Shown one piece after another: positions 2,623-47,282 of a stretch of DNA of 50,400 nucleotides. This DNA is from a virus, in IMG/VR virus record IMGVR_UViG_3300007734_000718, positions 1 to 50,400 of that record; one strand, given 5' to 3'. The notes below the pieces were generated by a model that did no database searches, had not been told where the DNA came from, and saw only the letters and a list, made by a program, of their open reading frames with translations. The position numbers and the translations under genes were made by a program. The stretch's first letter is position 1, and each line of letters opens with the position of its first letter.

Positions 2623-2981
2623 TGACGCTGTTGGTTTTTGCAAGCGTGTGCGCCATAGCCGTCTGTGGATTGGGCTATCGGTTTGCACTGCACGTCAGCC
2701 AGCAATGGGTGGCGTTACACTCGCGTCGGCTTGATTTGGATGAGCGCGTGATTGTGTTGCAAGAAGTCAAATCTCGACCGCAGCGGTCGCCGTCTATCCC
2801 GCCTGACTTGTTGCGACGTGTTACGCGCTGGGTGGATCCCGACGCGCAGGATGCGGAACGCAAGGCGATTTTGGATTTGTATGCGGAGTTTGCGGATGAC
2901 AGTGATCCGTGGGTCAAGGTGCGCCAGAACCTGTCTGCGGAACCCCGCGATGATACTTCCTCTGACATCTTTCTCCAGTGA
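2619..2981 (+). CDS. Small membrane-anchored protein upstream of portal, 120 aa
   Basis: The N-terminus (LLVFASVCAIAVCGLGYRFAL, split across residues 4-24) is one hydrophobic transmembrane segment. A charged region with helix-forming segments follows, ending in an acidic tail. Two adjacent ATG codons (2619 and 2622) can serve as start, the first in an ATGA overlap with the previous gene. The end overlaps the portal start by four bases. A short membrane protein also precedes the portal area in module B (43590-43859). Its role is unknown. Confidence 0.65.
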   Translation: MMTLLVFASVCAIAVCGLGYRFALHVSQQWVALHSRRLDLDERVIVLQEVKSRPQRSPSIPPDLLRRVTRWVDPDAQDAERKAILDLYAEFADDSDPWVKVRQNLSAEPRDDTSSDIFLQ

Positions 2982-5443: not shown

Positions 5444-5452
5444 GAGTTTTGT

Positions 5453-6667
5453 ATGACCGCACCCGCTGTGTCCGCTCCAAGCGCTCCGGCTTCGGCACCG
5501 AGCGCCCCCACGTCCGTCCCGACGGCACCGCTGTCTGCGCCCAGCCCGACGCAACCGGGCATGGTCCCTGGCTCCGTGCGCGAAGCGATTGCGCGGGTGG
5601 CCAACAAAACCAGCGTCGGTCCCGATGCGCCGGCGGCGGCAGAACCGTCCGTCAAGTTTGTGCGCGATCAGGACGCGCCCGCGCCTGAGCAAGCACCAGT
5701 GCAAGAGGCGTTCTCCGATACGCTCGATGTGGCGGATGACCAAGGCGGCATGGCCAACCTCGGGTCGGAATCCGATGGACAGGTGCCGGATAGCAACTCC
5801 GTGGCGGAACCCGTCAGCGAAATGTCGATGGAGGATGGCAGCATCATCCTGCGGGCGGAGCGCAATGCCGACGGGACGTACAAAACCAAGATGGACCCGA
5901 AAGCCAAGTTGGAACTGATTATCAAAGACCCCGAGACTGGCGAAAATCGGGTGTACCATAAGACGTTGCCCGAACTGACGCGCATGGCGCGGGATGGCAT
6001 TTGGGGGCAGAAAGTGCGCGGCGAAGTCAGCTATTACCGCGATAACCTGCCGGCGTGGCAACAGCAGCACCAAGACTTGCAAGCCAATCACCAGACCACC
6101 GCCGAGTTGGCGCGTGAGCTGTTGACGGCTTCCGAGGAAGTGGTGATTGCGCGGCGGGAGGAGTTTGCCGCCAGTCAGAGTCCCGAACGGCGGCTGGCCG
6201 AACTGGAACACCAGTTGCGGCAGAAGGCCGAGCAACAAATGCAGGTACAGCAGCAACAGCAGCAAGCCGCCCAAGCGAACGCTTTCCTGACATCCCGCAT
6301 TGCGCCGGTTGTCACACAGGCAGAGCAGACGCTTGGCGTGGATCGTGTGGCAGGAAAGATTGCGCGGGACACGATGGCGTTGACGGTCAACGGCAAGATT
6401 CCCCCGCAGAACTGGCAGAAACTTGATAGCTATTTCCAAAATCACTTCGCCCAATGGGCCAAGCAAGAGATTGGAAAGGTACAGCGGCAATCCAAGCAGC
6501 AAGATGAAGCGGTACGCAGGTCGCAGGCCGTCGTCAACAATGCCACGCGGGCGATTGCCCCCGTTGGCCGTGCTGCCGCCGACACGCCTCCCAAGCAGGC
6601 CGCGCCGACCAATGTTCGGAACGCGATTGACCGATTGGTCAACCGTCCGTTACCGAGTGGCTTCTAG
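5453..6667 (+). CDS. Capsid scaffolding protein (module A)
   Basis: This 404-residue protein is predicted to template procapsid assembly and then leave the head. TAGGAG lies 7 bases before the ATG. Residues 1-90 are Pro/Ala/Ser-rich and disordered. The middle is strongly helical with long coiled-coil stretches rich in Gln, Glu and Arg, around residues 195-280. The C-terminus is basic and ends in a small helical domain. This layout, and placement between portal and major capsid gene, fit a scaffold. The protein at 47322 has the same plan and a related C-terminal helix (ANxRNAIDRL versus RPIRNVDDAM). The TAG stop overlaps the stop of the opposite-strand HNH gene within one CTAG. Confidence 0.85.
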   Translation: MTAPAVSAPSAPASAPSAPTSVPTAPLSAPSPTQPGMVPGSVREAIARVANKTSVGPDAPAAAEPSVKFVRDQDAPAPEQAPVQEAFSDTLDVADDQGGMANLGSESDGQVPDSNSVAEPVSEMSMEDGSIILRAERNADGTYKTKMDPKAKLELIIKDPETGENRVYHKTLPELTRMARDGIWGQKVRGEVSYYRDNLPAWQQQHQDLQANHQTTAELARELLTASEEVVIARREEFAASQSPERRLAELEHQLRQKAEQQMQVQQQQQQAAQANAFLTSRIAPVVTQAEQTLGVDRVAGKIARDTMALTVNGKIPPQNWQKLDSYFQNHFAQWAKQEIGKVQRQSKQQDEAVRRSQAVVNNATRAIAPVGRAAADTPPKQAAPTNVRNAIDRLVNRPLPSGF

Positions 6668-7254
6668 GTGGGCAGAGCGGCAAGGGCTTTGGCCTTCTGC
6701 CGCTCGCGGTATCGTCGTGTTGCCTCTTTTGCCTTGTCGCGATACGCTTCACGATATGCCGCACAATGTTCGGAGTTTTTGTCTCGATATTGTTGCATAG
6801 CTTTTCGTTGATACGATCGAGTTTTTTCTGGATTCTTTGACCGGTATTGTGCTTGACGAATCGCACCGCATTGTTTGCAAAATCGTCGCCCCGATTCAAG
6901 TCGCGGCGCACTCAGGTTATCGCCACTCAAGGGATGCCCGCGCTTACAATGGGTTTTGTTCAGCATCGACATTCGGTCAACCCGCCGATGTTCTGCATCT
7001 GTGACAGCAATCAAATGGTGCGGATTGCAACACCGTTTGTTTTCGCAGATGTGGTGCAGGTGGTGGTTTTCTGGGATAGGCCCGACGTACAACTCGTAGG
7101 CCAACCGATGCGCTCGGGTGGACGTTCGCGGTTTCAAGGTCAATTGTCCGTATCCTCGGTTCAATGCGCCGATAAAGTTCCAGCATTGAGTCACGGGATC
7201 ATGGCAAATCTTGGAAATCAGCCGCTCTTTGGCGGTCATCCGATGGTGTGTCAT
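6664..7254 (-). CDS. HNH homing endonuclease, free-standing, 196 aa
   Basis: Read on the - strand, residues near 30-50 show the CWNFIGA..GYGQL lead-in, then AHRLAYELYVGPIP, then the HNH core HHICENKRCCNPHHL with the catalytic His pair and zinc-type cysteines. A second Cys/His cluster follows (HCKRGHPLSGDN ... RFCKQCG) and then a basic helical tail. This is the typical layout of phage HNH enzymes that cut DNA and spread by homing. The start is at the ATG at 7254; an in-frame ATG at 7239 is possible. Neither has a strong ribosome site. The open frame that continues upstream to 8421 is shadow over the capsid gene. The gene fills the whole scaffold-MCP gap and has no counterpart in module B. Confidence 0.9.
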   Translation of the reverse strand: MTHHRMTAKERLISKICHDPVTQCWNFIGALNRGYGQLTLKPRTSTRAHRLAYELYVGPIPENHHLHHICENKRCCNPHHLIAVTDAEHRRVDRMSMLNKTHCKRGHPLSGDNLSAPRLESGRRFCKQCGAIRQAQYRSKNPEKTRSYQRKAMQQYRDKNSEHCAAYREAYRDKAKEATRRYRERQKAKALAALPT

Positions 7255-9665: not shown

Positions 9666-10366
9666 GTATGACGCGAGCGCAGTTGACATCGATGGCGCGA
9701 GAGGTGGCTGATGCGGTGGGTTCCCCGCGTTGGTCGGATAGCACCATCCAGTCGTGGCTGGGGTTGGCGCAGTGGCAAGAGTTGGGCAACCTGCTCAACG
9801 CCAACCGCCAATACTACATGAACGTGGTGCAGCCGTACATGGATGCGGATGGACGGTTCTTGATGTCCGCGTTGACCACGGGAACCGGCGACAGCACGAA
9901 GAACTTTTATCGCGTGTTGACCATGAGCCAGCCGAACAACTCGGCGGCGACGGCGCAGGTCTATTACCGCAAAGTCAACTACGAAGAATATCCGAACCCC
10001 CAGCCCTCGACCTCCCTGCCATATGTGTGGTACGACTACGGGGACGAGATTCAGATTCTGCCGGCGGTGGGGGGATTGCAAATGAACGTGGTGTGCAACT
10101 ATCGCCCAGCGCGGGTCGATCAGTTGGTGGCGGATTCCTCCGTGGTGCCGTTTCCTGATGGCTATGAGTCCCTCCTGGCGTTGATGGCAGGGGCGCGGAT
10201 GCTGGACAAGGGCGGCGCGGAAGCCAATGCGGCGGCAATCTTGCGCGGGGAAGCCACGCAGATTCGGGAACAGATGTTGATGGACTTGGGTCGTCGGTCG
10301 TCGATGCCCATTATTGCCCGTGCCTTTGATGATCCCATGGGGTGGGGATCGGCGATGGCGGGCTAG
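9662..10366 (+). CDS. Head-to-tail adaptor-like protein, 234 aa
   Basis: The start is GTG in a GTGA overlap. The N-terminal helical part (MARExADAVGSPRWSDSTIQSWL) resembles the opening of podovirus connector proteins (gp4 of P22 or gp11 of T7 type), where a helical body binds the portal. A mixed region with YYRKVNY and a C-terminal helical AGARMLDKGGAEANAAAI follow, similar to gp4/gp11-type ends. Order after capsid and before a nozzle-like protein supports the assignment. I could not verify homology by search. Confidence 0.6.
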   Translation: MSMTRAQLTSMAREVADAVGSPRWSDSTIQSWLGLAQWQELGNLLNANRQYYMNVVQPYMDADGRFLMSALTTGTGDSTKNFYRVLTMSQPNNSAATAQVYYRKVNYEEYPNPQPSTSLPYVWYDYGDEIQILPAVGGLQMNVVCNYRPARVDQLVADSSVVPFPDGYESLLALMAGARMLDKGGAEANAAAILRGEATQIREQMLMDLGRRSSMPIIARAFDDPMGWGSAMAG

Positions 10367-11901
10367 TGGCGGCGCGTCCGGTCGTACAAGACCGCAATAC
10401 GCGGTTTGACGGGGGGCTGAACATCTCAGCCGACCCGTCCCAGTTGGCACCCAATCAAGTGCGTCGGGCAGAGAACTGCCGCCTGACCGTGTTTGGGGGC
10501 ATTATCAAACGGTTGGGGAGTCGCAAGATTCACCCCACGGCGCTGCAAACGGCGTCGGTGGTCCGCGCAGGGTTTGCGTGGATCAAGGATGACGGCACCC
10601 AGCAGTTGTTAGCGGTTGCCGCCGGCAAGCTGCACACCGCCACTTACAGCTCGTCGGTCACTTGGGTGACGGTTAGCTCGACGGTCACGATGACCACCTC
10701 GGCGTACCCCAGCTTTGTGTCGTTTCGGGATGCCACCGAAGCCGTGGTGTATATCGCGGATGGCGGCAAGCTGATGAAGTGGAATGGCACCAACTTGACG
10801 CGCAGTACCAGTAGCCCCAACGTCACGTCGATTTGGCTCTACAATCAACGGTTGTATGGGGTGACGGGGACGGATGTCATCTTGCTGGTGTCGGGCATTA
10901 ACAACGGCGATGACCTTGGGGATGCCAGCTTGGATGGCGCCCAGTTCCCGATTATTACGTTTGGCGAGTCCTCGTTAGTCAACGGCGTCGCGTTGGGCGT
11001 AATGAACTTGTTGTTTCACAAGAACGGCATCAGCAAGTTCGTGGGCGTGACGCAAGACGATATTGCCATTCGGGCAGGCACCTTGGGCTTGTCGCCTGAC
11101 GTTGGCACCATTCAGCCCAAAAGCTTGCTGGCGACGGAAACGGAAGCCTATTTCCTGTCCGATCGCGGGTTTTATGCCGCCAATGCGTATGGCGTGCGCC
11201 GGATTAGCACCAACTTAGACCCCGACATCCTTGGGTTGTTTACCAACGCCAACAACTTGTGCGTGGTGCATAACCGCTTTTACCGCGAAGTCGCGTGGTA
11301 TCTGCCCAATGTCGGCTTTTACGTCTACAACTATCAAGCGCAAGCGTGGGTCGGACCGTGGAATAACGGGTATGTGTCCCCTGTCACGCATTGCGCGTGG
11401 CAAGCCGTGGATACCGCAACGAGCAAGCCGATTGTGTTGGTCGGGGATGCGGCGGGCTATGTCAAGCAGATGGACTACCCCAATACCTACAAAGACAACG
11501 TGGCGTCCACGGGATCGGGCGGCACCACGGTTACTATGACGGCGCAGTTGCGGCGGCTGTTTTTTGGCAACCCCGCCAGCACCAAAGCCCTGCGGTTCTT
11601 GTATGCCCTCACCAATCTGGGCGGGGCGACCAATACGGCGGTGGCGTGGTCAACGCAAACGTACAGTGGACAGACTAATCTGCCCCTGACGTCGGCGGGG
11701 GTATGGAACGCGACGGGCGCCACATGGAACAGTGGGGCTGTGTGGGGGGCATCGGGTAGTGATATGTTTCGGGTGCAGGCGGCAGGCAATGGAGAGTTTG
11801 TGGACATCTCGTTCACGGATTCCAGCACCAATGCCATCCCCCTGTTATCCGCGATGACGGCAGAAGCGTACGACTACGGTCAAGCGCACTCCTTCAACTA
11901 G
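10366..11901 (+). CDS. Tail nozzle / DNA-stabilisation protein, 511 aa
   Basis: The start was set at GTG 10366, which overlaps the previous stop by one base (TAGTG); a frame from 10342 would overlap by 25 bases. The opening NTRFDGGLNISADPSQLAPNQVRRAENC is characteristic of the short-tail nozzle/stabilisation proteins (P22 gp10 and T7 gp12 type). Regularly spaced beta segments with xxVYIADGGKLMKWNGT and AYFLSDRGFYAAN blocks, as in a beta-propeller, follow. The length is close to that of gp10 (about 470). It probably forms the end of the short tail that retains packaged DNA. It lies directly before the tail-fibre gene. Confidence 0.72.
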   Translation: MAARPVVQDRNTRFDGGLNISADPSQLAPNQVRRAENCRLTVFGGIIKRLGSRKIHPTALQTASVVRAGFAWIKDDGTQQLLAVAAGKLHTATYSSSVTWVTVSSTVTMTTSAYPSFVSFRDATEAVVYIADGGKLMKWNGTNLTRSTSSPNVTSIWLYNQRLYGVTGTDVILLVSGINNGDDLGDASLDGAQFPIITFGESSLVNGVALGVMNLLFHKNGISKFVGVTQDDIAIRAGTLGLSPDVGTIQPKSLLATETEAYFLSDRGFYAANAYGVRRISTNLDPDILGLFTNANNLCVVHNRFYREVAWYLPNVGFYVYNYQAQAWVGPWNNGYVSPVTHCAWQAVDTATSKPIVLVGDAAGYVKQMDYPNTYKDNVASTGSGGTTVTMTAQLRRLFFGNPASTKALRFLYALTNLGGATNTAVAWSTQTYSGQTNLPLTSAGVWNATGATWNSGAVWGASGSDMFRVQAAGNGEFVDISFTDSSTNAIPLLSAMTAEAYDYGQAHSFN

Positions 11902-33257: not shown

Positions 33258-33638
33258 CTAGGACTGCGACAATCTGCGCTTGGCGTACATACGCTTGAGC
33301 TTGGCACTGCGTTGCAACTGCGATTTGCGGTCGTGGTATTTGCGCTGGGTTACCGTGCGAGCCAATCGTTGCTCGCGCTTGGCAACAATCGTCGCGGCGC
33401 GCTTGGCTTGCACGTCTGCGCGCTGTGCCGCTTCGGTCGCGGCGGCGGTGCGCGTAACGCGTTCCACAATATCGGCAATATCAATAAACGCCGCCGCCGA
33501 TAACGTGCCGTGCGGATACTGTGGATAGAAACCGTGCGCCTGTGCAACCGCCGCGTTCGCAGACTCTGCGGCGAGCTTGGCAATCAGGCGCGGCAGGTGC
33601 GGGAGCGGGGGCGCGTAGGTGATGTGATAGTTTGGCAC
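33258..33638 (-). CDS. Hypothetical basic helical protein, 126 aa
   Basis: This is the last gene of the - strand operon and starts at GTG 33638, two bases after the preceding stop. The N-terminal 50 residues are Ala/Pro-rich. The C-terminal 65 residues are strongly basic and helical (KRAATIVAKREQRLARTV ... KRMYAKRRLSQS) and could bind nucleic acid. It has no recognised domain. The start lies in a GGGGGACTGACGGTG junction like those of the two genes upstream. Confidence 0.6.
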   Translation of the reverse strand: MPNYHITYAPPLPHLPRLIAKLAAESANAAVAQAHGFYPQYPHGTLSAAAFIDIADIVERVTRTAAATEAAQRADVQAKRAATIVAKREQRLARTVTQRKYHDRKSQLQRSAKLKRMYAKRRLSQS

Positions 33639-33640
33639 CG

Positions 33641-34006
33641 TCAGTCCCCCGTCTGGTCAGAAAGTTCATTGCCCGTCGGGAAGCAATCGACGTTTGGCTC
33701 TGCAAGCACGGCGCGGTAATAGTTCCGCTTGCACTCCCATTGCCGCGTTTGCCGTTCGCGTTGGCGGGGCGCTATCCACTCGTTCCAATCGGCGGCTTCC
33801 TCGGCACGGCTTGCGTCGAGTGACGCAACCATTTGTTTGATTTCGCGTGTACAGTGGTCGATATAATCGCGGCGGCGTGTGCGCTCGCGGGTGCTTTCTG
33901 CAAACTCATTTTTGTAGTCGGCGGCAATCGCGGCGCGCGCGGCTTCGTATGCGGCGGTCAGTTCTTGTGCTTTGGCGCGAGCGGTTAGGGCGGCAATAGT
34001 AAGCAT
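33641..34006 (-). CDS. Hypothetical charged helical protein, 121 aa
   Basis: ATG start at 34006 in a GGACTGACCGATG junction. The protein is almost wholly helical, with alternating Ala, Glu and Arg (AYEAARAAIAADYK, ESTRERTRRRDYIDH) and a Trp-containing segment. It resembles a coiled coil. No catalytic residues are evident. Function unknown. Confidence 0.6.
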   Translation of the reverse strand: MLTIAALTARAKAQELTAAYEAARAAIAADYKNEFAESTRERTRRRDYIDHCTREIKQMVASLDASRAEEAADWNEWIAPRQRERQTRQWECKRNYYRAVLAEPNVDCFPTGNELSDQTGD

Positions 34007-34009
34007 CGG

Positions 34010-34204
34010 TCAGTCCTCCTGTGCGGAAGCCACAGCTTTTTTTGCGGCGTGTAACGCTTGCCGCGCCAAAAGGAGCGGACGCGCAATTTCATAGTGCGCT
34101 TTTGTGTTCTGTTTTCCTGCGGCAAAAAACGTCTGATTTTGCTCACTCAGCGCCGCAATTTGCGCTTCCAGTTCTGCAATCGTCGCAGTGTTTGGTGTCG
34201 GCAT
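34010..34204 (-). CDS. Hypothetical coiled-coil protein, 64 aa
   Basis: ATG start at 34204 in the same type of junction, its upstream neighbour ending four bases before. The sequence TIAELEAQIAALSEQNQTFF is a canonical leucine/isoleucine heptad helix, and a second helix follows (LLLARQALHAAKKAVASA). It probably dimerises. Function unknown. Confidence 0.6.
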   Translation of the reverse strand: MPTPNTATIAELEAQIAALSEQNQTFFAAGKQNTKAHYEIARPLLLARQALHAAKKAVASAQED

Positions 34205-34207
34205 CGG

Positions 34208-34357
34208 TCAGTCCTCTGTGTCGGTGTCGTCGTGGCAGATATGCGCGGGTGTCGGCGCGGCGGTCGCGGTGGCAAGGGCAAGTTCGTACTGTGTCCACTG
34301 CGCGGGGGTCACGGTGCGAAGGTTGAGCGCGGGAAGAACGGTTGCAGTGCTAGTCAT
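34208..34357 (-). CDS. Hypothetical small protein, 49 aa
   Basis: ATG at 34357 is preceded by ACAGCGAGGCACCAA, a leader shared with the VWA and AAA+ genes. The product has a short beta/helix segment (LNLRTVTPAQWTQYELALATA) and an acidic tail. A longer frame from 34552 overlaps the VWA gene and is shadow. Confidence 0.55.
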   Translation of the reverse strand: MTSTATVLPALNLRTVTPAQWTQYELALATATAAPTPAHICHDDTDTED

Positions 34358-34413: not shown

Positions 34414-36078
34414 CTAGTGGCTCACAATGTACTGCACAATCGCGGTCGCAAGTTCCTCGCCGCTCGCCGCCATTATTGCGCGGGAAAAATACTTGGTCAG
34501 TGCATCGCGCACAATCTTTGCAGAGTAGTCCGTGTTCGGGGTCACGGTGCATCCGATAAGGTCAACGCCCTGCGACCGCCAGTGCCCAGCGTTCACGTCC
34601 CCATCGGTCAACTGTCCGTCCGTGTAAATAAGCACGGTGTCGGCGGCGAGTAGATTTGGCTTCCACTTGGTCAGGGTGCGGTCAATACTTTCGCACCCTT
34701 CGCTACACGCGAACCGCCCGAACAAGCGCGCCGGAAATGCGCGCGGCACTTTCGCAGAGCGGTGACCGCCCGTCAAAATAATATCAACATCCACCACGCC
34801 GCGCTGTGCGAGCGTCTGCAAGGCGGCGGCGAAGACTGCGCCGTGCTCGCGCCAGTCGTGCGACATCGACCCGCTCTGGTCGAAGATGGCAACGATGCGG
34901 CGCTTGCCGTGTGTCGCAGTCGGAGTGCGGAATGCCATTGGCTCCCCAAGCACCGCATTCAACGGCACCACGCGCGCGCCGCTCTGTGCGAGTCGTTGGC
35001 GCGGCGAGTCCACGGCACCCAGCAACCGCGCCAGTCGCCCTGCCACGTTCGCAATGCGGCGGGTGTCTAGTTCGTAGTACCCAGCGATGCGTTCGGTGTC
35101 TGCACCGACTGCGGCAGAGCACCCGAAGCGGTCGCGGAAGTCGTCGTCGGACAGCGTGACACAGTTCGTGCCGCCCTGCAAGAACCCGCCCAGTGACGCA
35201 AGTTCGTACGTGGGCAGACTGCCGATTTCGGCAGTGGTGAACGTGCCCGTGTACGCGGTGGGCGCGGTGATTTTTCCAGCGCCCGTGTTGTTGGGACTGT
35301 AACCGCACCCGCTACTTGTGATGCCGAGCTCTTCGGGCGTCTTGGCTTCGGGAAACGTCGCGACCCAGTCCACGCAGAGCGCGAGCGCGTCCAACGTCGT
35401 CGGCGCGGCGATAACTTCGCGGTAGAATGCGTCGATAACTTCTGCCGTCCGTGTCGCAGACTCTGCGACGCCGCCGCGCAGTCGTTGCACGGTTGCCGCG
35501 CCGCTCCAGCGGCACCGATAGGGTGAATATACGGTGCTTGCTTCGCGCTTGATGCGGTCAAAAAATAACTCGGCAGGGTGTGCCGTTTCTTCGCGTAACT
35601 TATTCCAACGATACCAATCGAACGGTACCTTCTCTGCCACGCGCGCGCCGTGCTCAATGCGCGCGTCTTCGAAGATATTCAAGAGCGAAAACGGCACTGC
35701 CGCCAGCGCGACTTCTTCGCGAATCTTGGCAAAATCGCGCTCGGTCAACTCGCCGTGCCAACGCTCGTGCCGAATCATTGCCGTGCCGTAGGCGATATAG
35801 GCGCGCCGACTGTGCGCGGAGCGCGCCTTGCGGCTCACGGTGTCGGTATAGTTCGGGTCAAGAGTGATGCGGTGGCACTTTGCGGCAGTGTCCCACGTCC
35901 ACGCCGCCGTACCGCCGCACGGCTCTGCGGCAAGCATACACGGTGCGGCGGTGCTTGCTACCAGCAAGGTCACGTGTCCATCGGCGCGCTTCGCCTTGCG
36001 GAGCACGGCAGTCGTGAGCGGAAGCACCGTGCGCGCGCGCTTGGGTGCGGGTGTAGGTGTAACGGTTGGTGCGGTCAT
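34414..36078 (-). CDS. VWA-domain protein with N-terminal HExxH segment (CobT-like), 554 aa
   Basis: ATG 36078 follows the leader ACACAGCGAGAGACGAA. Residues 104-108 are HERWH, an HExxH-type zinc motif, and NIFEDARIE at 134-142 lies where a third ligand is found in CobT-like and DUF2201-type proteins. The C-terminal VWA domain has a metal-ion-dependent adhesion site: DQSGSM at 400-405 and YTDGQLTDGD at 485-494. Paired with the adjacent MoxR-like ATPase, it fits a chaperone or chelatase-like machine in which the VWA protein binds a client that the AAA+ ring remodels. The client is unknown; no cobalamin genes are present. Confidence 0.75.
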   Translation of the reverse strand: MTAPTVTPTPAPKRARTVLPLTTAVLRKAKRADGHVTLLVASTAAPCMLAAEPCGGTAAWTWDTAAKCHRITLDPNYTDTVSRKARSAHSRRAYIAYGTAMIRHERWHGELTERDFAKIREEVALAAVPFSLLNIFEDARIEHGARVAEKVPFDWYRWNKLREETAHPAELFFDRIKREASTVYSPYRCRWSGAATVQRLRGGVAESATRTAEVIDAFYREVIAAPTTLDALALCVDWVATFPEAKTPEELGITSSGCGYSPNNTGAGKITAPTAYTGTFTTAEIGSLPTYELASLGGFLQGGTNCVTLSDDDFRDRFGCSAAVGADTERIAGYYELDTRRIANVAGRLARLLGAVDSPRQRLAQSGARVVPLNAVLGEPMAFRTPTATHGKRRIVAIFDQSGSMSHDWREHGAVFAAALQTLAQRGVVDVDIILTGGHRSAKVPRAFPARLFGRFACSEGCESIDRTLTKWKPNLLAADTVLIYTDGQLTDGDVNAGHWRSQGVDLIGCTVTPNTDYSAKIVRDALTKYFSRAIMAASGEELATAIVQYIVSH

Positions 36079-36116
36079 TTCGTCTCTCGCTGTGTATGTG
36101 GTGGGTGTGTGATGCG

Positions 36117-37622
36117 TTAGATAGCGCGGAGTAGTGCCGCCCACGGCTCGCAGGCTTTCGCAGACTGCGGGTCGGTGTCGCCTGTGTCGGCATTCCAGTG
36201 CGCGCAGTTATCGGTGAGTCGCTCTGCGATTTTCTGCGCCGTGTCTGCGGCGGTGCCGTTACTGCGAGCGGCGGCGCGTTCGACGGTGCGAATATCGACG
36301 GCGAAGCGCACCGCGCCGCTTGCCATTTGCTTCCGGCTCTCGGCAATCACGTTGCCGACACACTGTGCCAGCACGTTGCCTGTGTCTGTGACGCCCTGTG
36401 CGGCGAGCACGGCGGCGGCGACACTCGCCGCGATTTTCGGCGTAAACTCGAATCGCACCGTTTCCCAGCGTGACCAAAACGCTTCAATAATCGGCGCAAT
36501 GCCCAGATTTGTCGCGCCGACAATGTGCAGGTGTTCCACGGCGCACGACACGACTTCTAGGTTACCATCGGCACCGACTCTGCGCGTTCGCAGGTAGTAG
36601 CGCCCGTCTCTCGGCACCAAGAATGCCAGCAGAAACTCCATCGGCGTTTGCCCAAGTCGCAAAACTTCATCTAAGAATAACAGCACCGTTTTTTCGTCGC
36701 TCGCGGCGCGCACGGCTTGCGTTAGTACGCCATCAATGCCCGTCCACCCGCCGTGCCCGTCCGGGAGCACCGACCCCAGCATTGTTGCCACTTCGTCCAT
36801 ATCGTTACTGCAGTTATGCTCCAAATACACGTCATAGTTTGCGGCAAACTTTCGCACCGCATACGACTTGCCGAGTGACGGCGGCGATGCGAGCAATAGA
36901 TTCCCTGCGGATGGCACACCCGCCGTGTACCAGCCTGCCAGCGCGTCTGCGATAGGCGAGCCAGTCGCCGCTGGGACTCCCAGCGCGGCGCGCACGGCGC
37001 GCTTCGTGGCGGGTGTCGCCGTGTCTAAAATATCGAGCGCGGTGTGCAACGTGTCTGCGAGTGTCGCGACCGTCTCGCCTAACGGGTGCAGAGACGTAGC
37101 GGTTACGTCCTCTGCAATTTCGCGCACTTGTTCGGCGGTGAGTCCACCGCCGCGCAAAATATCGAGCAGTGCGCGCTCGCGGTCGTTCGTGTCCAGCGGT
37201 GCAACGGGCGTGATACGTGTCACGGTGTCCCCTGTGGTGGTGGGTGTAGTGGTGGGTGTTTCGTCGGTGTCGCTCGCAGACTCTGCCGCAGACTCGCTTG
37301 CAGACTCTGCGACTGCGGCGGTGGTGGTCGTGGTGCGCGCGGCGGGGCCGTGCCCTCGCCGTTCGTCGTGTCCTCGCACAAACGGCTTGCCGCGCACAAC
37401 GGTGATATCCGCGGCGCGTACTTTTGCTTCGACGGCGGCGCTCCCAGCGTGCAAAATGAGGCATTCATAGTCGCCGTCTCCCCATATGCCAGTAATATCG
37501 GCATATTCGTTCGTGACGGTGTGCAACGAATATGCTGGTGCTGGTGGTGTGTCGCTCCCAGTGTCATTCCGCGTCACGGTGCCTGTGACCAGCACCCGCT
37601 GTCCTACTCGTAACTGTGCCAT
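36117..37622 (-). CDS. MoxR/CobS-like AAA+ ATPase, 501 aa
   Basis: ATG 37622 follows ACACAGCGAGAGACGAACA. Residues 1-85 form a small beta-rich domain (VGQRVLVTGTVTRND ... VVRGKPFV). A low-complexity linker rich in Ser, Ala, Glu and Thr follows, then a helical segment. The AAA+ core has Walker A SPPSLGKS at 246-253, Walker B LLFLDEV at 314-320 and a sensor VGATN at 368-372. This is the MoxR/CobS branch that works with VWA partners; the next gene in the operon is such a partner. The linker DNA carries three GCAGACT words read on the + strand. It is the first gene of the - strand operon. Confidence 0.78.
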   Translation of the reverse strand: MAQLRVGQRVLVTGTVTRNDTGSDTPPAPAYSLHTVTNEYADITGIWGDGDYECLILHAGSAAVEAKVRAADITVVRGKPFVRGHDERRGHGPAARTTTTTAAVAESASESAAESASDTDETPTTTPTTTGDTVTRITPVAPLDTNDRERALLDILRGGGLTAEQVREIAEDVTATSLHPLGETVATLADTLHTALDILDTATPATKRAVRAALGVPAATGSPIADALAGWYTAGVPSAGNLLLASPPSLGKSYAVRKFAANYDVYLEHNCSNDMDEVATMLGSVLPDGHGGWTGIDGVLTQAVRAASDEKTVLLFLDEVLRLGQTPMEFLLAFLVPRDGRYYLRTRRVGADGNLEVVSCAVEHLHIVGATNLGIAPIIEAFWSRWETVRFEFTPKIAASVAAAVLAAQGVTDTGNVLAQCVGNVIAESRKQMASGAVRFAVDIRTVERAAARSNGTAADTAQKIAERLTDNCAHWNADTGDTDPQSAKACEPWAALLRAI

Positions 37623-38000: not shown

Positions 38001-38104
38001 GCGCAAATCGAAAACCCGAACAAAACCCGAACCTTTGATTAGTTTTCGATTACGGTTATTTTGCCGCGTGTTCGGCATTTGTTCGGGTTTGGGGGGATTT
38101 GCGC
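38001..38104. repeat. Nested inverted repeats
   Basis: GCGCAAAT (38001) pairs with ATTTGCGC (38097), AATCGAAAAC (38006) with GTTTTCGATT (38042), and AAACCCGAACAAA (38012) with TTTGTTCGGGTTT (38078), all perfectly. The alternatives are mutually exclusive folds of about 50 or 100 bases. The stretch is AT-richer than its surroundings. It could be a protein-binding region, an origin element or an attenuator. Confidence 0.65.
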
Positions 38105-38137: not shown

Positions 38138-38260
38138 AAAACGCCAAGTCGTTGAACCACAAGCGCTTGGGACGCTTGGGCTTTGCTGGCGTTCTGCGGC
38201 ACCGCCACGAGGCGCAAACCATTTTGGGCGGTATCGGTGCCTTGAAACGCTAAGTCGTTG
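38138..38260. repeat. Direct repeat pair AAACGCYAAGTCGTTG
   Basis: AAACGCCAAGTCGTTG (38139) and AAACGCTAAGTCGTTG (38245) are direct copies 106 bases apart; both are followed a few bases later by CACAA. They lie between a TATAAT at 38108 and one at 38295, so they may be regulator sites or remnants of a duplicated control element. Confidence 0.5.
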
Positions 38261-38272
38261 CGGCACAACAAC

Positions 38273-38300: not shown

Positions 38301-38340
38301 CGCCTCCTGCGAATCCGTACAAAGTTACTCGGGATTCCCC

Positions 38341-38401
38341 GTGTCATTTGGACACGGAAACGTGTCATTTGGACACGCGCCCCCTGTGTCATTGTGACAC
38401 A
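38341..38401. promoter_or_regulatory. Three operator-like palindromes
   Basis: GTGTCATTTGGACAC occurs twice identically (38341-38355 and 38362-38376, 21 bp apart), followed by TGTGTCATTGTGACACA (38385-38401), with a shared GTGTC-N5-GACAC core. Equal helical-face spacing of the first two suggests cooperative dimers of a repressor or activator. No matching regulator is identified in the window. Confidence 0.7.
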
Positions 38402-38606: not shown

Positions 38607-38788
38607 GTGCGGCGCGCCGTGCGCTACTGGCGTGGAACGCGCGCGAGGCGGGGCGCAAACGGAGGGGGTTCTGGGAAAAAGTCCGGTTTGCGCGGGCGCC
38701 GGTAGTAATCAACCCCTCCCACGCCCCCCTTTCGCTTGGTACAAGACAAGACTAGTGTACAAGGCAACCAGTGACCCCGGAGGGCACG

Positions 38789-39247
38789 ATGGCGGAGACG
38801 TATAGCGCAGAACGCAAAGACGCGGTGCTAGAGGCCGTGTTGGCGGGAATGAGCGAGGGCAAGACGGTGTCGGATGTGGCGCGCAGGGAAAAGGTCAACG
38901 TCGGAACGGTGCGCCAGTGGATTGCCAACGATGAACAGATGTTTGCGCGGTATCAGCGGATGCGACCCCTTCTTGGGGCCAGTTTTGCCGAAGAAGCGGT
39001 CAGAATTGCGCGAGATTCGCAAAATGCGAATGTGCCGGTTGACCGGTTGTTGGTGGAAACGCTGAAGTGGGCGGCGGCAAAGAATGCGCCGTTGGACTAT
39101 GGCGAGAAGCAGACGGTGGAACACCAAGGCGCGCAGGAGTTGCGGGTGCGCGTGGTGGAGGAGGATGCGCCGATGCAGGTACGCGCAGGAGCCAGCGCCG
39201 TGGCGCTGTTGGCGGCAAACGTCGTAGAATCGCATTACACGCCCTAA
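38789..39247 (+). CDS. terS: Terminase small subunit, 152 aa (module B)
   Basis: ATG 38789 follows GGAGGGCACG; a GTG at 38771 is in frame but lacks spacing. Residues 15-50 read AVLAGMSEGKTVSDVARREKVNVGTVRQWIAND, a helix-turn-helix DNA-binding domain typical of small terminases. A helical oligomerisation region follows (SFAEEAVRIARDS ... LLVETLKWAAAK), then a basic/valine-rich C-terminus. The subunit recognises the packaging site and delivers DNA to the large subunit, encoded 358 bases downstream. The spacing leaves room for a packaging site. Confidence 0.75.
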   Translation: MAETYSAERKDAVLEAVLAGMSEGKTVSDVARREKVNVGTVRQWIANDEQMFARYQRMRPLLGASFAEEAVRIARDSQNANVPVDRLLVETLKWAAAKNAPLDYGEKQTVEHQGAQELRVRVVEEDAPMQVRAGASAVALLAANVVESHYTP

Positions 39248-39524: not shown

Positions 39525-39570
39525 GTAGCACAGCTATGCGACGGGGGGGGTCGCATTGGTACAATGCTAC
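39525..39570. repeat. Second copy of iteron-like palindrome with G-runs
   Basis: GTAGCACAGCTATGCGAC (39525-39542) fits the consensus GTNGCANAGCTNTGCNAC of the repeats inside the initiator gene. After eight G residues comes GTCGCATTGGTACAATGCTAC (39550-39570), a related imperfect palindrome, and then another G-run. The structure is the same as at 29158-29199. Confidence 0.65.
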
Positions 39571-39604
39571 TTGCGGGGGGTGTACGGCACCGATAGGTTG
39601 GGGG

Positions 39605-40930
39605 ATGGCCCGTGGGAAGCCGACCAAGCCCGGAGCCGTGGAAGTTGTCCTCCACCGTTTGCATCCGGGTCAGCAAAAGATTGTTTCACACCCGGCGCGG
39701 TTCAAGGTCGTGATGTGTGGGCGTCGCTTCGGCAAGACCGCGCTGGGTATTCGATGCGCGTGTGATACGGCGATTGCGGGCAAGTTAGTCGGCTGGTTTT
39801 CGCCTACGCACAAATACGCGCTGGAAGTGTGGCGCGAATTGCTCAATCGGCTTGCGCCAATTATTGCCAACAAAAGCGAGCAAGACAAACGCATTGAGTT
39901 AGTCACGGGCGGCGTCATTGAAATTTGGACGTTTGACACGGATGACCCGGCGCGTGGACGCAAATACCATCGCGTTATTGTAGACGAAGCCGGGCTAGTG
40001 CCTGAACTAGAGCGCGTCTGGCAATCGGCTATCCGATTGACGCTCGTGGATTACCAAGGCGATACGTTGTTTTTGGGGACTCCCAAAGGGCGTCAGCACG
40101 GGTTTGTGTTGTTGTTTGCCAAAGGGCAAAGCGGCAATGCCGATTGGATGAGTTTTCGCGCCTCCACACGCGATAACCCGTACATCCCGTTGAGCGAGAT
40201 TGAAGAAGCGCGCAAAGATATGCCTGCCGCGATTTTTGCTCAAGAGATTGAGGGCATTCCCGCTGACGATGGGGGCAACCCGTTTGGGCAAACGGCGATT
40301 GCGGAATGCACCAAATCCAAAATGCCGGATGCCGATGACCCCGACCATATGCCGGTGGTGTGGGGGTGGGATTTAGCGCGCGCGCAAGATTGGACGGTGG
40401 GCATTGCGCTGGATATGGCGGGCAACGTCGTGCGCGTCGAACGGTGGCAACTGCTTCCGTGGAGCGACACGGTCAAAAAGATTAGCCAATGCACGGGCGA
40501 CACCCCAGCGTGGGGCGACGCGACGGGCGTGGGCGACCCCATTATTGAGCGGTTACAGGAATTTGGGGTGCCAATTGAGGGATTTACGTTTGGCAGTAAA
40601 TCCAAACAAGCGTTGATGGAACGGCTGGCAAGCGTCATCCAGCACAAGGAAATCACGTTTCCGATGGGCGTGATTGCCGCTGAACTGGAGACGTTTACGT
40701 ACCAGTACACGGCAACCGGGGTGCGGTACACGGCTCCCAGCGGATTGCACGATGATGCGGTGATGGCGCTGGGGCTGGCGGTGTATGGGTATGACCGGGT
40801 GCGCCCAATGATGCAAGCCCTGCCAATGCGCCCCCGCTTGACAGGTGACCCCAACCGAGTAGAAGATTACTATGGGGAAAACGGCGGTCACGTCGAAGGG
40901 TTCGACGCGCAGTTGCCGTCGCAGTGGTAA
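39605..40930 (+). CDS. terL: Terminase large subunit, 441 aa (module B)
   Basis: The ATG at 39605 follows AGGTTGGGG; the frame from 39536 adds a repeat-encoded extension and is rejected. Walker A is CGRRFGKT at residues 38-45, Walker B VIVDEA at 124-129, and motif III FLGTPKG at 156-162. The RNase H-like nuclease has GWDLARAQDWT (Asp256), DATGVGD (Asp305) and HDDAVMALGL (Asp383/384). It is a complete ATP-driven packaging motor and headful or site-specific nuclease. It differs clearly from the truncated large terminase at the window start, which lacks these C-terminal motifs in this form. Confidence 0.93.
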   Translation: MARGKPTKPGAVEVVLHRLHPGQQKIVSHPARFKVVMCGRRFGKTALGIRCACDTAIAGKLVGWFSPTHKYALEVWRELLNRLAPIIANKSEQDKRIELVTGGVIEIWTFDTDDPARGRKYHRVIVDEAGLVPELERVWQSAIRLTLVDYQGDTLFLGTPKGRQHGFVLLFAKGQSGNADWMSFRASTRDNPYIPLSEIEEARKDMPAAIFAQEIEGIPADDGGNPFGQTAIAECTKSKMPDADDPDHMPVVWGWDLARAQDWTVGIALDMAGNVVRVERWQLLPWSDTVKKISQCTGDTPAWGDATGVGDPIIERLQEFGVPIEGFTFGSKSKQALMERLASVIQHKEITFPMGVIAAELETFTYQYTATGVRYTAPSGLHDDAVMALGLAVYGYDRVRPMMQALPMRPRLTGDPNRVEDYYGENGGHVEGFDAQLPSQW

Positions 40931-43859: not shown

Positions 43860-45061
43860 CAATTCCGGGACAAATGATTTCGCCAAAGGCGCTGGAACTT
43901 TTGCGGTTGTTGATGACAGCGGCAGAAAATCCCGCAGTGATGCAAAGTGCCCGTGGAATGGCAGAACACGAATTGCCGTGGGCTGGAGCGTTGTCAAATG
44001 GCAAAATGATGTTCAACGGAACACGCGAAACTGTTCCCGGATTGGGAACGGGCAAACTTGCCGATGCGTTGTTGTCTGCGTCACCAGAAATGCGTCAAGC
44101 ATATCACGATGCGGCGGGCGACGTTCCAACGTGGCAAGCCATTGGGCGTCAATCTGCGCCATCTTTACAGGGAACGGGAAGTTTTCAAAAAACGCCAAGT
44201 TCCCCGTGGGAAACAAATCCGCTTTCAATCAACCGCCCATTTGTTGAAACTGCGCTAACCAAACCCAATCTTCGTGCAAAAATTCCCGGCAATGAAATAA
44301 CGCTCAAGCAAGGGGAATTGCCGTTAGCAAAGAAAATGGAAGCATTGGCGGGATTTGCAGATATGCAAAATGGTGCCGCTGGGCACGTTATGTTGCCGGG
44401 CGGCGGCAGTGGATTTTCCGCATTGTCTCGCGGCACAACGCCCGATGAAATGAAAGCATTGCTCAACACTTATGCGCCAGCAGGATACTCTCCCGTTGAT
44501 ACGGGGAAAGGCGTTTCATTGATGAATTTTGGTGAAGATTCAGAAACGGCGTTGATGTCAAAATTGCCAAAGTTGAATGAACAAATGCAACAAATGATTC
44601 CAGACGCATCTGCAATTGTACCTACGCATTTTCAAAAAACCATTCCGCAGGGAATGGGATATTTTGATGCGGGAAAAGCAATTCCAGAATCGGCAGTGTA
44701 CACAGATTTTAGTCGAGAATTTTCTGAAGGTAATCAAGGGAATCGGTCAGCTTCAAGAAAATTGGCTGATATGTTTAGCGGCAAAGAAAGCAAAGATATT
44801 GTCAAAAAGCTCAATCAAAGCGATGCGTTGTCGCAGTCAATGCTTGACCGCAATGCACGGGATGAAGAATTTGCAGGCTTGCTTGGCGTAAAAAATCGCA
44901 AAGACATAACGCTTGTTCGCAAGATTATTGGCGAAGACGGATTCAAAGCATTTATGAAAGCCGTGCAAGATGGAAAGATTGCTTTGCCAGCGGCAACAGC
45001 TATGATTACTAAGGTTGTTGACCAATACGGCGGAAGCGAGGGAGTCGATACAAATGAGTAG
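43856..45061 (+). CDS. Hypothetical protein, possible internal virion protein, 401 aa
   Basis: ATGA overlap upstream and an eight-base overlap with the portal start. The protein is globular, with a conserved-looking GYSPVDTGKGVSLMNFGED segment near residue 217 that I associate with phage polyvalent-type proteins, and a helical C-terminus (MFSGKESKDIVKKLNQSDALSQSM). DNA here is lower in GC and A-rich compared with the neighbours, a sign of separate origin. No enzymatic motif is visible. Confidence 0.58.
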   Translation: MTIPGQMISPKALELLRLLMTAAENPAVMQSARGMAEHELPWAGALSNGKMMFNGTRETVPGLGTGKLADALLSASPEMRQAYHDAAGDVPTWQAIGRQSAPSLQGTGSFQKTPSSPWETNPLSINRPFVETALTKPNLRAKIPGNEITLKQGELPLAKKMEALAGFADMQNGAAGHVMLPGGGSGFSALSRGTTPDEMKALLNTYAPAGYSPVDTGKGVSLMNFGEDSETALMSKLPKLNEQMQQMIPDASAIVPTHFQKTIPQGMGYFDAGKAIPESAVYTDFSREFSEGNQGNRSASRKLADMFSGKESKDIVKKLNQSDALSQSMLDRNARDEEFAGLLGVKNRKDITLVRKIIGEDGFKAFMKAVQDGKIALPAATAMITKVVDQYGGSEGVDTNE

Positions 45062-47282
45062 CCCGCTATCGTTTCCAATGGAAATGCCCGACATTGAAGG
45101 GCAAATTGAACAAATGGCGCGCGATGCGGCGCAACAGGTGTTGCAACCGGAACTGTCGCAAATGGCAGAACCCAGCAAGGCCAATGACATTGTTGCGCCG
45201 AATCCGCCCGATAACATTTCGTTGCCTGCTGATGACCAAGTTCACGCTTTAGCGCGCACGTTGTACGGGGCTGATTTTCCCCTGTTGCTTCCCGGACAAG
45301 AAGAAGAAGGACGGGCGTGGGCGTCGTGGGTACGGGGCCGTTGGGTTGCACACCGTGGAGCAGTTGAACGCCATTTGCATTTGGTGGAGCGCAATCGGTT
45401 GTTCCGCATTGGACAACAGTGGGTGTCGTCCCGTGGACGTGGCCCGTGGCGCGAACCGCTCAAACCCGTTGATACGGCGCGAGTGGTGTATAATATGGTG
45501 GACAAGTCGCTTGACCAGCGCCTCCAGATTATGAGCGACCAACGCCCCGGTTTCAAAGTTGAACCAACAACGGTTGACCCCGAAGAAAAGCGCAAGGCAG
45601 AAGCGCGGCAAATTGCGCTGGAATACCAGTACGATGAGCAAAATATGGACAACATCCGCCGCACCGCCGGATTTTGGGCGCAGACGGATGGCGTGTCGTT
45701 TTTGCACACGTATTGGGACGCCGAAAAAGGGCCGTGGGATTCGCGTATGGCGGATGGGCATATGCCATCAAAACCGTTGGGCGACCTTGCAACCAAGGTG
45801 TTGCGTGTCGAGCAAGTGCGCGTGTCGTCAAATGCGACATCTACGGATACGCCGTATTACGTCATTTCCCGTGAAGTGCTGTCTGCAACAGAAGCGGCGT
45901 GGCGGTATGGTGTGAGTGGTGCGTTGGCGTCGCACAATAGCGATGCAATTGTTGGCACCAGCGATTTGGCAACCGATGCGGGAATGAATCGTTGGGTGCT
46001 TGACCAGACCACGATTGGCGAAGGCGACCGTTTGCGAATGCAAGAAACGGTGGAACGGTTTACCATTTACGTAGACCGCCACCCGGACTTGTTGCCCAAC
46101 GGATTGCAAATTGTTATTGTGGGCGACACGATGGTCAGTGGCCCATTGCCATTGCTGTTTGGCGTGATTCCGGTGGTGCCGTTTCGGGACGGCTCGGCTG
46201 ACCCCTCGTATTACCCGCGCCCAATTATGGAACAATGGCTTGACCATCAAGTGCGTATCAACGCGCTGGTGTCCAAGTGGGTAGATTCGGTGCGCGTCAA
46301 CGCCGCAGGGCGATTCCTGACTCGCGCAGGCACGATTGTCACCGAAACCATTGTGGGTGGTGGCACGTCGTTGATGGAAGTCAATTCGGGCCGTGCGTTG
46401 GACGATATTATGCGTCCGGTGCCCGGATTTAGCGTTGGACAAGACTGCAAAGATTTGCTCAGCCTTGAAAAGAAAGCATTTGAAGACGCTTCTGGGTACA
46501 ATGACACGAGCCGGGGGCAGATTTCGGGCGATGCGTCGGGTCGCGCTATCCTTGCGGCGCGTGAACAACTCGAACGAGTGTTTGCACCGTGCGTTGGGGC
46601 GGCGGCAACGGCGTTGACGGCGTGGGCAAAGGTACAAGTTGCGGGAATGGCGTTCGGTTATGATGTGCCGCGCGACCTCGGCGCAGTGGGCAACAGCCGA
46701 CCCGACTTGGCACACGCTTTGACCCGCGATATGTTTGATGGGCCGGTGTCGTTGCGTGTGGAACCTGAAACATTGATGCCAATGCCTCGCGTGTATCGTC
46801 AGTTTTTGCTGGATTCGTGGCTTGACAAGGGCGTGATTACGCAACAGCAGTATTTGCGTCGTCAGCCTACGGCTATGATTTCGGATATGGACACGCCAGA
46901 CGAAGACCAGTCGGCGCGGGCAAAGCGTATCTGCGAAAGTCTGCGACTCAAACAACAACCGCCTGAAATGCGGTGGCAGGACAACGAAGCCATTCATCAA
47001 GACATCTTGGAACGCGAGATTATCCTGCGGGATGACCTTGACCCAACGATTGTGCAAGCGGCACAAGACCGCTGGGGGCAGTTGGCCCAGCAGTCGCAAA
47101 TGAAACAGGGGGGTGGGCCGCCGCAAGGCGGTACGCCTCTAATGCCCGAAGGAAACGGCGGGCCAAGTCCGTTCCAACCCTCCCCACAGGCACAACCTCT
47201 AGCGACGATGAATCCGTCTGCTGGTGGCGCACCGCCCCAGATGGTTCCAACGGGCGTTGGGCAACCACCGCAGATGGGCTAA
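45054..47282 (+). CDS. Portal protein, 742 aa (module B)
   Basis: The ATG at 45054 has GAGGGAG about ten bases upstream and overlaps the previous gene. It shares ADFPL, WxxGRW, ERNRLFRIGQQ, DQRPGFKVEPT, EYQYDEQNM, FWAQTDGVSF, YWDAEKGPW, RVEQVRVSS and SGRAILAAREQLERVFAP blocks with the portal at 2978. It is the dodecameric DNA gate. The C-terminus is again Pro/Gly/Gln-rich but shorter than in module A. It is followed by a scaffold gene. Confidence 0.9.
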   Translation: MSSPLSFPMEMPDIEGQIEQMARDAAQQVLQPELSQMAEPSKANDIVAPNPPDNISLPADDQVHALARTLYGADFPLLLPGQEEEGRAWASWVRGRWVAHRGAVERHLHLVERNRLFRIGQQWVSSRGRGPWREPLKPVDTARVVYNMVDKSLDQRLQIMSDQRPGFKVEPTTVDPEEKRKAEARQIALEYQYDEQNMDNIRRTAGFWAQTDGVSFLHTYWDAEKGPWDSRMADGHMPSKPLGDLATKVLRVEQVRVSSNATSTDTPYYVISREVLSATEAAWRYGVSGALASHNSDAIVGTSDLATDAGMNRWVLDQTTIGEGDRLRMQETVERFTIYVDRHPDLLPNGLQIVIVGDTMVSGPLPLLFGVIPVVPFRDGSADPSYYPRPIMEQWLDHQVRINALVSKWVDSVRVNAAGRFLTRAGTIVTETIVGGGTSLMEVNSGRALDDIMRPVPGFSVGQDCKDLLSLEKKAFEDASGYNDTSRGQISGDASGRAILAAREQLERVFAPCVGAAATALTAWAKVQVAGMAFGYDVPRDLGAVGNSRPDLAHALTRDMFDGPVSLRVEPETLMPMPRVYRQFLLDSWLDKGVITQQQYLRRQPTAMISDMDTPDEDQSARAKRICESLRLKQQPPEMRWQDNEAIHQDILEREIILRDDLDPTIVQAAQDRWGQLAQQSQMKQGGGPPQGGTPLMPEGNGGPSPFQPSPQAQPLATMNPSAGGAPPQMVPTGVGQPPQMG

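What the first reader, a model, noticed from the sequence alone, without database searches (positions are those of the whole stretch)
34414..37622. Phage-encoded MoxR-like AAA+ / VWA pair with a zinc-peptidase-like HExxH segment
The ATPase has complete Walker A/B and sensor motifs; its partner has an intact MIDAS (DQSGSM, YTDGQLTDGD) plus HERWH and NIFEDARIE in its N-terminal half. Established knowledge: MoxR/CobS-VWA pairs act as chaperones or metal-insertion machines. No cobalamin gene is near, and the pair heads its own - strand operon with four small helical proteins. It may be a host-directed remodelling or counter-defence system and is the best candidate here for an undescribed module.
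Basis: partly seen in the sequence, partly recalled or inferred. Interest (0 to 1): 0.7.

Follow-up and report, generated by a model that had tools for sequence, protein, structure and literature searches.

The report
Divergent phage MoxR–zincin-VWA gene pair
An uncultivated phage carries an intact two-gene machine, an ATP-driven ring protein and a partner that joins a zinc-protease-like domain to a metal-binding adaptor domain; it is a far-diverged member of a gene pair already reported in many phages, whose job has never been tested.

Summary
At 34414–36078 (−) there is a 554-aa protein with an N-terminal HExxH…N-x2-ED-x3-E domain and a C-terminal VWA/MIDAS domain. At 36117–37622 (−) there is a 501-aa MoxR-type AAA+ ATPase. 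Both have relatives in about 23 IMG/VR contigs, adjacent in the order AAA then VWA. They are under purifying selection, their distances co-vary (r=0.95), and the HExxH, ED and MIDAS residues are invariant.

The pair is not an undescribed kind of system. MoxR plus metallopeptidase-vWA pairs in jumbo phages were described in PMC7824862, and viral 'cobST' clusters in eight host orders in PMC8651126. HHTV-2 and Microcystis phage Mae-Yong1326-1 carry the same HExxH…ED motifs.

What is new is a divergent subfamily: no isolate phage matches by tblastn, the P-loop is mostly [SA]PPSxGK[ST], and it lies next to terminase genes. Viral partners keep HExxH; the S. meliloti CobT checked here lacks it; no CobN or ribonucleotide reductase was found in 23 records. 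This argues against a cobalt chelatase and for an ATP-driven chaperone/metallopeptidase, probably acting on virion or packaging proteins. The client is unproven. The four small downstream genes are not conserved with the pair.

The parts
36117..37622 (-). MoxR/NorQ-type AAA+ ATPase, 501 aa: variant P-loop SPPSLGKS, Walker B LFLDE, sensor-1 ATN, R445; N-terminal beta-rich domain (residues 1-80), disordered linker 82-163, ATPase 203-501
34414..36078 (-). zincin-like + VWA partner, 554 aa: HERWH (104-108), NIFEDARIE (134-142), linker, MIDAS DQSGS/TD (400-404, 486-487)
34208..34357 (-). small ORF, 49 aa; weak coding signal; not conserved
34010..34204 (-). small ORF, 64 aa; tightly coupled to its neighbours; no homologue found
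33641..34006 (-). small ORF, 121 aa; no convincing homologue found
33258..33638 (-). small ORF, 126 aa; marginal similarity (E about 0.4 with low-complexity filtering) to genes downstream of the pair in L003/L004
38340..38401 (.). three operator-like palindromes GTGTC-N5-GACAC, 21 and 24 bp apart, between the AAA gene and the divergent terminase small-subunit gene
38771..39247 (+). terminase small subunit, divergent neighbour (synteny marker)
39536..40930 (+). terminase large subunit, divergent neighbour (synteny marker)

Best explanation
The two genes encode one ATP-driven remodelling machine. Inferred mechanism: the AAA+ protein forms a MoxR/NorQ-type hexamer; the VWA domain docks on it and presents a client; ATP hydrolysis pulls or twists the partner; and the N-terminal zincin domain of the partner cuts, or at least grips, the remodelled client. 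The client is most likely a virion or packaging-associated phage protein. Shown here: intact and conserved catalytic and metal-site residues, predicted MoxR and VWA folds, adjacency, co-divergence, purifying selection, and conserved location beside the terminase genes. Inferred from related systems: hexamer formation, coupling and substrate remodelling. Inferred only: peptidase activity and the client. I put the two-protein machine at about 0.85, an active zincin at about 0.5 and a virion/packaging client at about 0.4.
For: The AAA model matches CbbQ2 and NorQ (Z 17-18, about 250 residues). The VWA model matches midasin-MIDAS and NorD-VWA (Z 14-15). HExxH, N-x2-ED-x3-E and MIDAS are invariant in 22 proteins. 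HExxH and the ED motif lie in two predicted helices (92-112, 131-150) preceded by beta strands, as expected for a gluzincin-like site. The PHROG 'peptidase' family 459 matches the same N-terminal region in relatives. Pairwise distances co-vary between the two proteins (r=0.95, Mantel p=0.0001; some of this reflects shared descent of the genomes) and dN/dS is 0.08-0.29. A terminase homologue lies upstream on the opposite strand in 19 of 23 records; the other four are cut by contig ends. No S78 or ClpP prohead-protease family was found in the window or 12 relatives. Literature: a MoxR-vWA pair was reported to be required for tail development in Acidianus two-tailed virus, and a virion-assembly plus peptidolysis role was proposed for the jumbo-phage pair (both as told in PMC7824862); NorQ is modelled to twist NorD (PMC13036017).
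Against: I found no report of a client, hexamer or peptidase activity for any pair of this zincin-vWA architecture. The terminase synteny may simply be inherited genome organisation. The genes are divergent from the late block, and in HHTV-2 they coexist with a separate prohead protease. Hardycor1 has its pair in the replication/accessory module. Most tailed phages assemble without such a pair (general knowledge).
Confidence: 0.45

Rival explanations
1. Viral cobaltochelatase CobST: the pair works with host CobN to raise cobalamin production for viral DNA synthesis.
For: Published for viral cobST clusters (PMC8651126). The VWA profile aligns to S. meliloti CobT over the VWA domain. Predicted folds match phage proteins named CobT-like and CobS.
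Against: No CobN or ribonucleotide reductase in the window or 22 relatives. The CobT N-terminal profile PF06213 matches none of 17 records, and neither CobT profile is listed for any member. S. meliloti CobT lacks HExxH (CHDARVH at the corresponding place) while all 22 aligned viral proteins keep it. CobN would have to come from an unknown host.
Confidence: 0.1
2. Host takeover or counter-defence: the pair unfolds or cleaves a host protein, for example a defence or regulatory protein.
For: The pair forms its own unit apart from the structural genes, followed by small non-conserved ORFs as is common in accessory regions. MoxR-vWA modules are used in bacterial conflict systems (PMC7159879).
Against: Accessory anti-defence genes usually come and go. 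This pair is kept beside the terminase genes through deep divergence with all catalytic residues fixed. No specific link to a defence system was found; the PADLOC library was not searched.
Confidence: 0.2
3. Non-proteolytic metal-insertion or maturation chaperone of the NorQD kind: the HExxH domain holds and delivers a metal to a phage or host metalloenzyme instead of cutting.
For: Closest solved relatives are NorQ/NorD and CbbQ, and NorQD drives metal insertion (PMC13036017).
Against: No target metalloenzyme gene was recognised near. A fixed Glu in HExxH plus a downstream Glu is the signature of hydrolytic zincins rather than of a carrier (general knowledge); the S. meliloti CobT, from a metal-inserting system, has no HExxH.
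Confidence: 0.2

Closest known systems
MoxR AAA+ / N-terminal metallopeptidase-vWA pair of group 2.2 jumbo phages (PMC7824862; ASV44729.1/ASV44728.2)
   Same: MoxR ATPase paired with a vWA protein that carries an N-terminal metallopeptidase domain
   Different: Found here in a record of about 50 kb, with sequences not detected by tblastn in 50,697 phage records, a variant P-loop, and a terminase-linked position. I did not fetch the jumbo-phage proteins themselves.
Viral cobST clusters (HHTV-2 gp2/gp3/gp10; Microcystis phage Mae-Yong1326-1; Gordonia phage GMA7; Lactococcus phage KSY1)
   Same: HExxH plus a downstream N-ED-I[ED] motif in HHTV-2 and Mae-Yong1326-1 (HExxH with looser downstream motifs in GMA7 and KSY1), a VWA domain, and an adjacent AAA gene in Mae-Yong1326-1, GMA7 and KSY1
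   Different: Very low sequence similarity; profile matches mostly cover the VWA domain, the P-loop region or the HExxH motif only; P-loop differs
Cellular cobaltochelatase CobS/CobT (S. meliloti)
   Same: AAA gene followed by VWA gene; VWA domain alignable
   Different: CobT N-terminal profile not matched; HExxH absent from S. meliloti CobT; CobN partner absent from the viral records
NorQ/NorD and CbbQ/CbbO
   Same: Among the best structural matches of the ATPase (Z 17-18) and VWA (Z about 14) domains
   Different: The NorD entries matched over their VWA part only; the known clients, nitric oxide reductase and Rubisco, were not seen here

Membership tests
MoxR-like AAA+ ATPase | P-loop Lys, Walker B DE, sensor-1 Asn, AAA+ fold of the CbbQ/NorQ type | tested here: met
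   K252, D318/E319 and N372 invariant in 24 proteins; CbbQ2/NorQ Z 17-18; PF07728 matches 13 of 24 members, best 4.6e-12, though not the window protein itself; first P-loop Gly replaced in most members
vWA/MIDAS protein | DxSxS, Thr and Asp MIDAS residues in a vWA fold | tested here: met
   D, S, S, T and D invariant in 22 proteins; vWA matches Z 12-15
Zincin metallopeptidase | HExxH plus a candidate third metal ligand in a downstream helix | tested here: met
   HExxH and N-x2-ED-x3-E, 29-32 residues on, in all 22 sequences; predicted helices
Zincin metallopeptidase | Zincin fold of the N-terminal domain | tested here: inconclusive
   Structural comparison of the whole model listed only vWA matches; the domain could not be folded and searched alone
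Zincin metallopeptidase | Zn binding and peptide hydrolysis | not testable with these tools
   Needs protein
Cellular CobT (cobaltochelatase) | Match to PF06213 (N-terminal) and PF11775 (C-terminal) | tested here: not met
   PF06213 in 0 of 17 records at E<=0.001; neither family listed for the 22 proteins; both match S. meliloti CobT at E<1e-96
Cobaltochelatase CobNST | CobN subunit available | tested here: inconclusive
   0 of 23 viral records, but a host CobN is possible and many records are fragments
Viral MoxR / metallopeptidase-vWA pair ('cobST') | AAA gene next to a gene for an HExxH...ED domain plus linker plus vWA | tested here: met
DUF2201 metallopeptidase-VWA family | Match to PF13203 | tested here: not met
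   0 of 17 records
VMAP/iSTAND ternary conflict systems | Conserved third component (VMAP or iSTAND) beside the pair | not tested
   No conserved third gene common to all lineages appeared in the neighbour clustering apart from terminase, but the VMAP profiles themselves were not run

The most novel reading that the evidence does not exclude
The viral 'cobST' clusters as a whole are not cobaltochelatases but ATP-driven metalloproteases or processing chaperones (a MoxR ring with a zincin-vWA adaptor), with this terminase-linked subfamily acting on packaging or virion proteins. Cellular CobT would then be a relative that lost its zinc site and was reused for cobalt insertion.
Probability: 0.35. 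Interest if true: 0.65.

Novelty: new member of a known kind. Interest (0 to 1): 0.38.

Why it matters
Viral 'cobS/cobT' genes are counted as cobalamin metabolic genes, including as core genes of T4-like cyanophages (PMC8651126). The fixed HExxH in the viral partners examined here, its absence from S. meliloti CobT and the lack of CobN or ribonucleotide reductase in these records suggest that label may be wrong for at least this branch. A single mutant of the HExxH glutamate could decide between chelatase, chaperone and protease.

Tried and rejected
tblastn of both window proteins and of several relatives against 50,697 phage records found nothing at the limits used (1e-5 or 0.01); at E<=10 only weak local matches. 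A genome scan with the AAA profile found nothing; with the VWA profile it found one MAG contig, L043, where the two genes are apart. PDB sequence search reaches only NorQ, CbbQ, midasin and marginal vWA matches. Thermus phage P74-26 has an AAA/VWA pair but no HExxH, so it is not the same architecture. The HHTV-2 N-terminal protein aligns to the profile exactly at the motifs but without statistical support as a single sequence. The idea of a conserved six-gene operon was rejected.

Full report
What is there. The window is a 50.4-kb IMG/VR virus record of a tailed phage (terminase, portal, major head protein, DnaB-like primase/helicase). On the minus strand lie the AAA gene (36117-37622) and, 38 bases downstream, the VWA gene (34414-36078). 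The AAA protein has a beta-rich N-terminal domain, a disordered linker and a MoxR-type ATPase. The partner has a predicted N-terminal domain of strands followed by two helices bearing HERWH and NIFEDARIE, a disordered middle and a VWA domain with MIDAS.

Is it real. Relatives came from IMG/VR scans. In 22 aligned VWA proteins, the relatives being 20-44% identical to the window protein, all HExxH, N-x2-ED-x3-E and MIDAS residues are invariant. In 24 AAA proteins the catalytic residues are invariant, but the P-loop is mostly [SA]PPSxGK[ST] rather than GxxxxGK[ST]. The AAA gene precedes the VWA gene in every viral record that covers both. Pairwise protein distances of the two families correlate at r=0.95, Mantel p=0.0001, and dN/dS between close relatives is 0.08-0.29. 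The correlation partly reflects vertical inheritance of the genomes. The pair is under selection, not decaying.

Surroundings. In 19 of 23 records a terminase homologue lies upstream on the opposite strand; the other four records are cut by contig ends. These terminases match different PHROG families (phrog_2, phrog_15 and, for one group, phrog_5902 with a weak terminase match and a clear small-subunit neighbour), so the arrangement is kept across distinct packaging modules. In the window the intergenic stretch carries three operator-like palindromes. The four small downstream ORFs are probably genes in three cases but have no convincing homologues in relatives. Neither CobN nor ribonucleotide reductase was found in the window or 22 relatives. 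No S78 or ClpP prohead-protease family was found in the window or 12 relatives.

What it is. The ATPase model is closest to CbbQ2 and NorQ (Z 17-18), the VWA model to midasin-MIDAS and NorD (Z 14-15). Against predicted viral structures the whole partner aligns end to end with phage proteins named VWFA-domain or CobT-like (TM-scores are low, probably because the domains are flexibly linked), and the ATPase with phage MoxR/CobS proteins. HHTV-2 gp2 has HEVQH...NVLEDNHID with a separate VWA gene product gp3 and AAA gp10. Mae-Yong1326-1, annotated CobS and CobT, has HETLH...NCLEDVRIE, linker and MIDAS, with the AAA gene first. GMA7 and KSY1 proteins also carry HExxH. The PHROG 'peptidase' family 459 hits the HExxH...ED region of several relatives.

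Prior knowledge. PMC7824862 describes a MoxR-vWA pair with an N-terminal metallopeptidase domain in group 2.2 jumbo phages and proposes virion assembly with peptidolytic processing. PMC8651126 reports cobST clusters in tailed viruses of eight host orders, calls the peptidase annotation mistaken, and proposes hijacking of host CobN. PMC7911831 notes AAA/vWA pairs in haloviruses. The kind is therefore known; this subfamily is not annotated in Pfam, NCBIfam or PHROGs beyond weak matches.

Mechanism. Related machines suggest a MoxR hexamer whose ATP cycle twists a vWA partner (PMC13036017). The added zincin domain suggests cutting. S. meliloti CobT, which belongs to a real chelatase, has CHDARVH and no HExxH, and the window family fails the CobT profiles, so the chelatase reading is weakened for this branch, though host CobN cannot be excluded. 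Only one cellular CobT was examined. A virion or packaging client is favoured by the terminase linkage, the lack of a recognised prohead protease and the archaeal virus precedent, but this is inference.

Verdict. Observation confirmed; 'undescribed module' not supported; a divergent, well-conserved member of the viral MoxR/zincin-vWA pairs whose function is open.

Noticed in passing
window 38340-38401: Three copies of the palindrome GTGTC-N5-GACAC spaced 21 and 24 bp in the divergent region between the AAA gene and the terminase small subunit; found nowhere else in the window and more than any of 100 shuffles gave. Looks like a repressor operator array; the relative L001 (98% identical AAA) keeps two.
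   Followed up: partly
window 2978-5443 and 45015-47282: Two portal-like proteins (both phrog_156) in one phage record, 43% identical over 618 residues.
   Followed up: partly
window 38012-38090 and 38139-38268: A 21-nt inverted repeat and an imperfect 24-nt direct repeat in the same intergenic region.
   Followed up: no
L013 2449-4132: The VWA protein is split into two consecutive ORFs (341 and 218 aa), reminiscent of the split pair in HHTV-2; could also be a sequencing frameshift.
   Followed up: no
L043 (Sulfurimonadaceae MAG contig) 5347-7026 and 9685-11067: The only match in the genome-contig scans; VWA and AAA genes lie about 2.7 kb apart instead of adjacent. The contig may be viral.
   Followed up: partly
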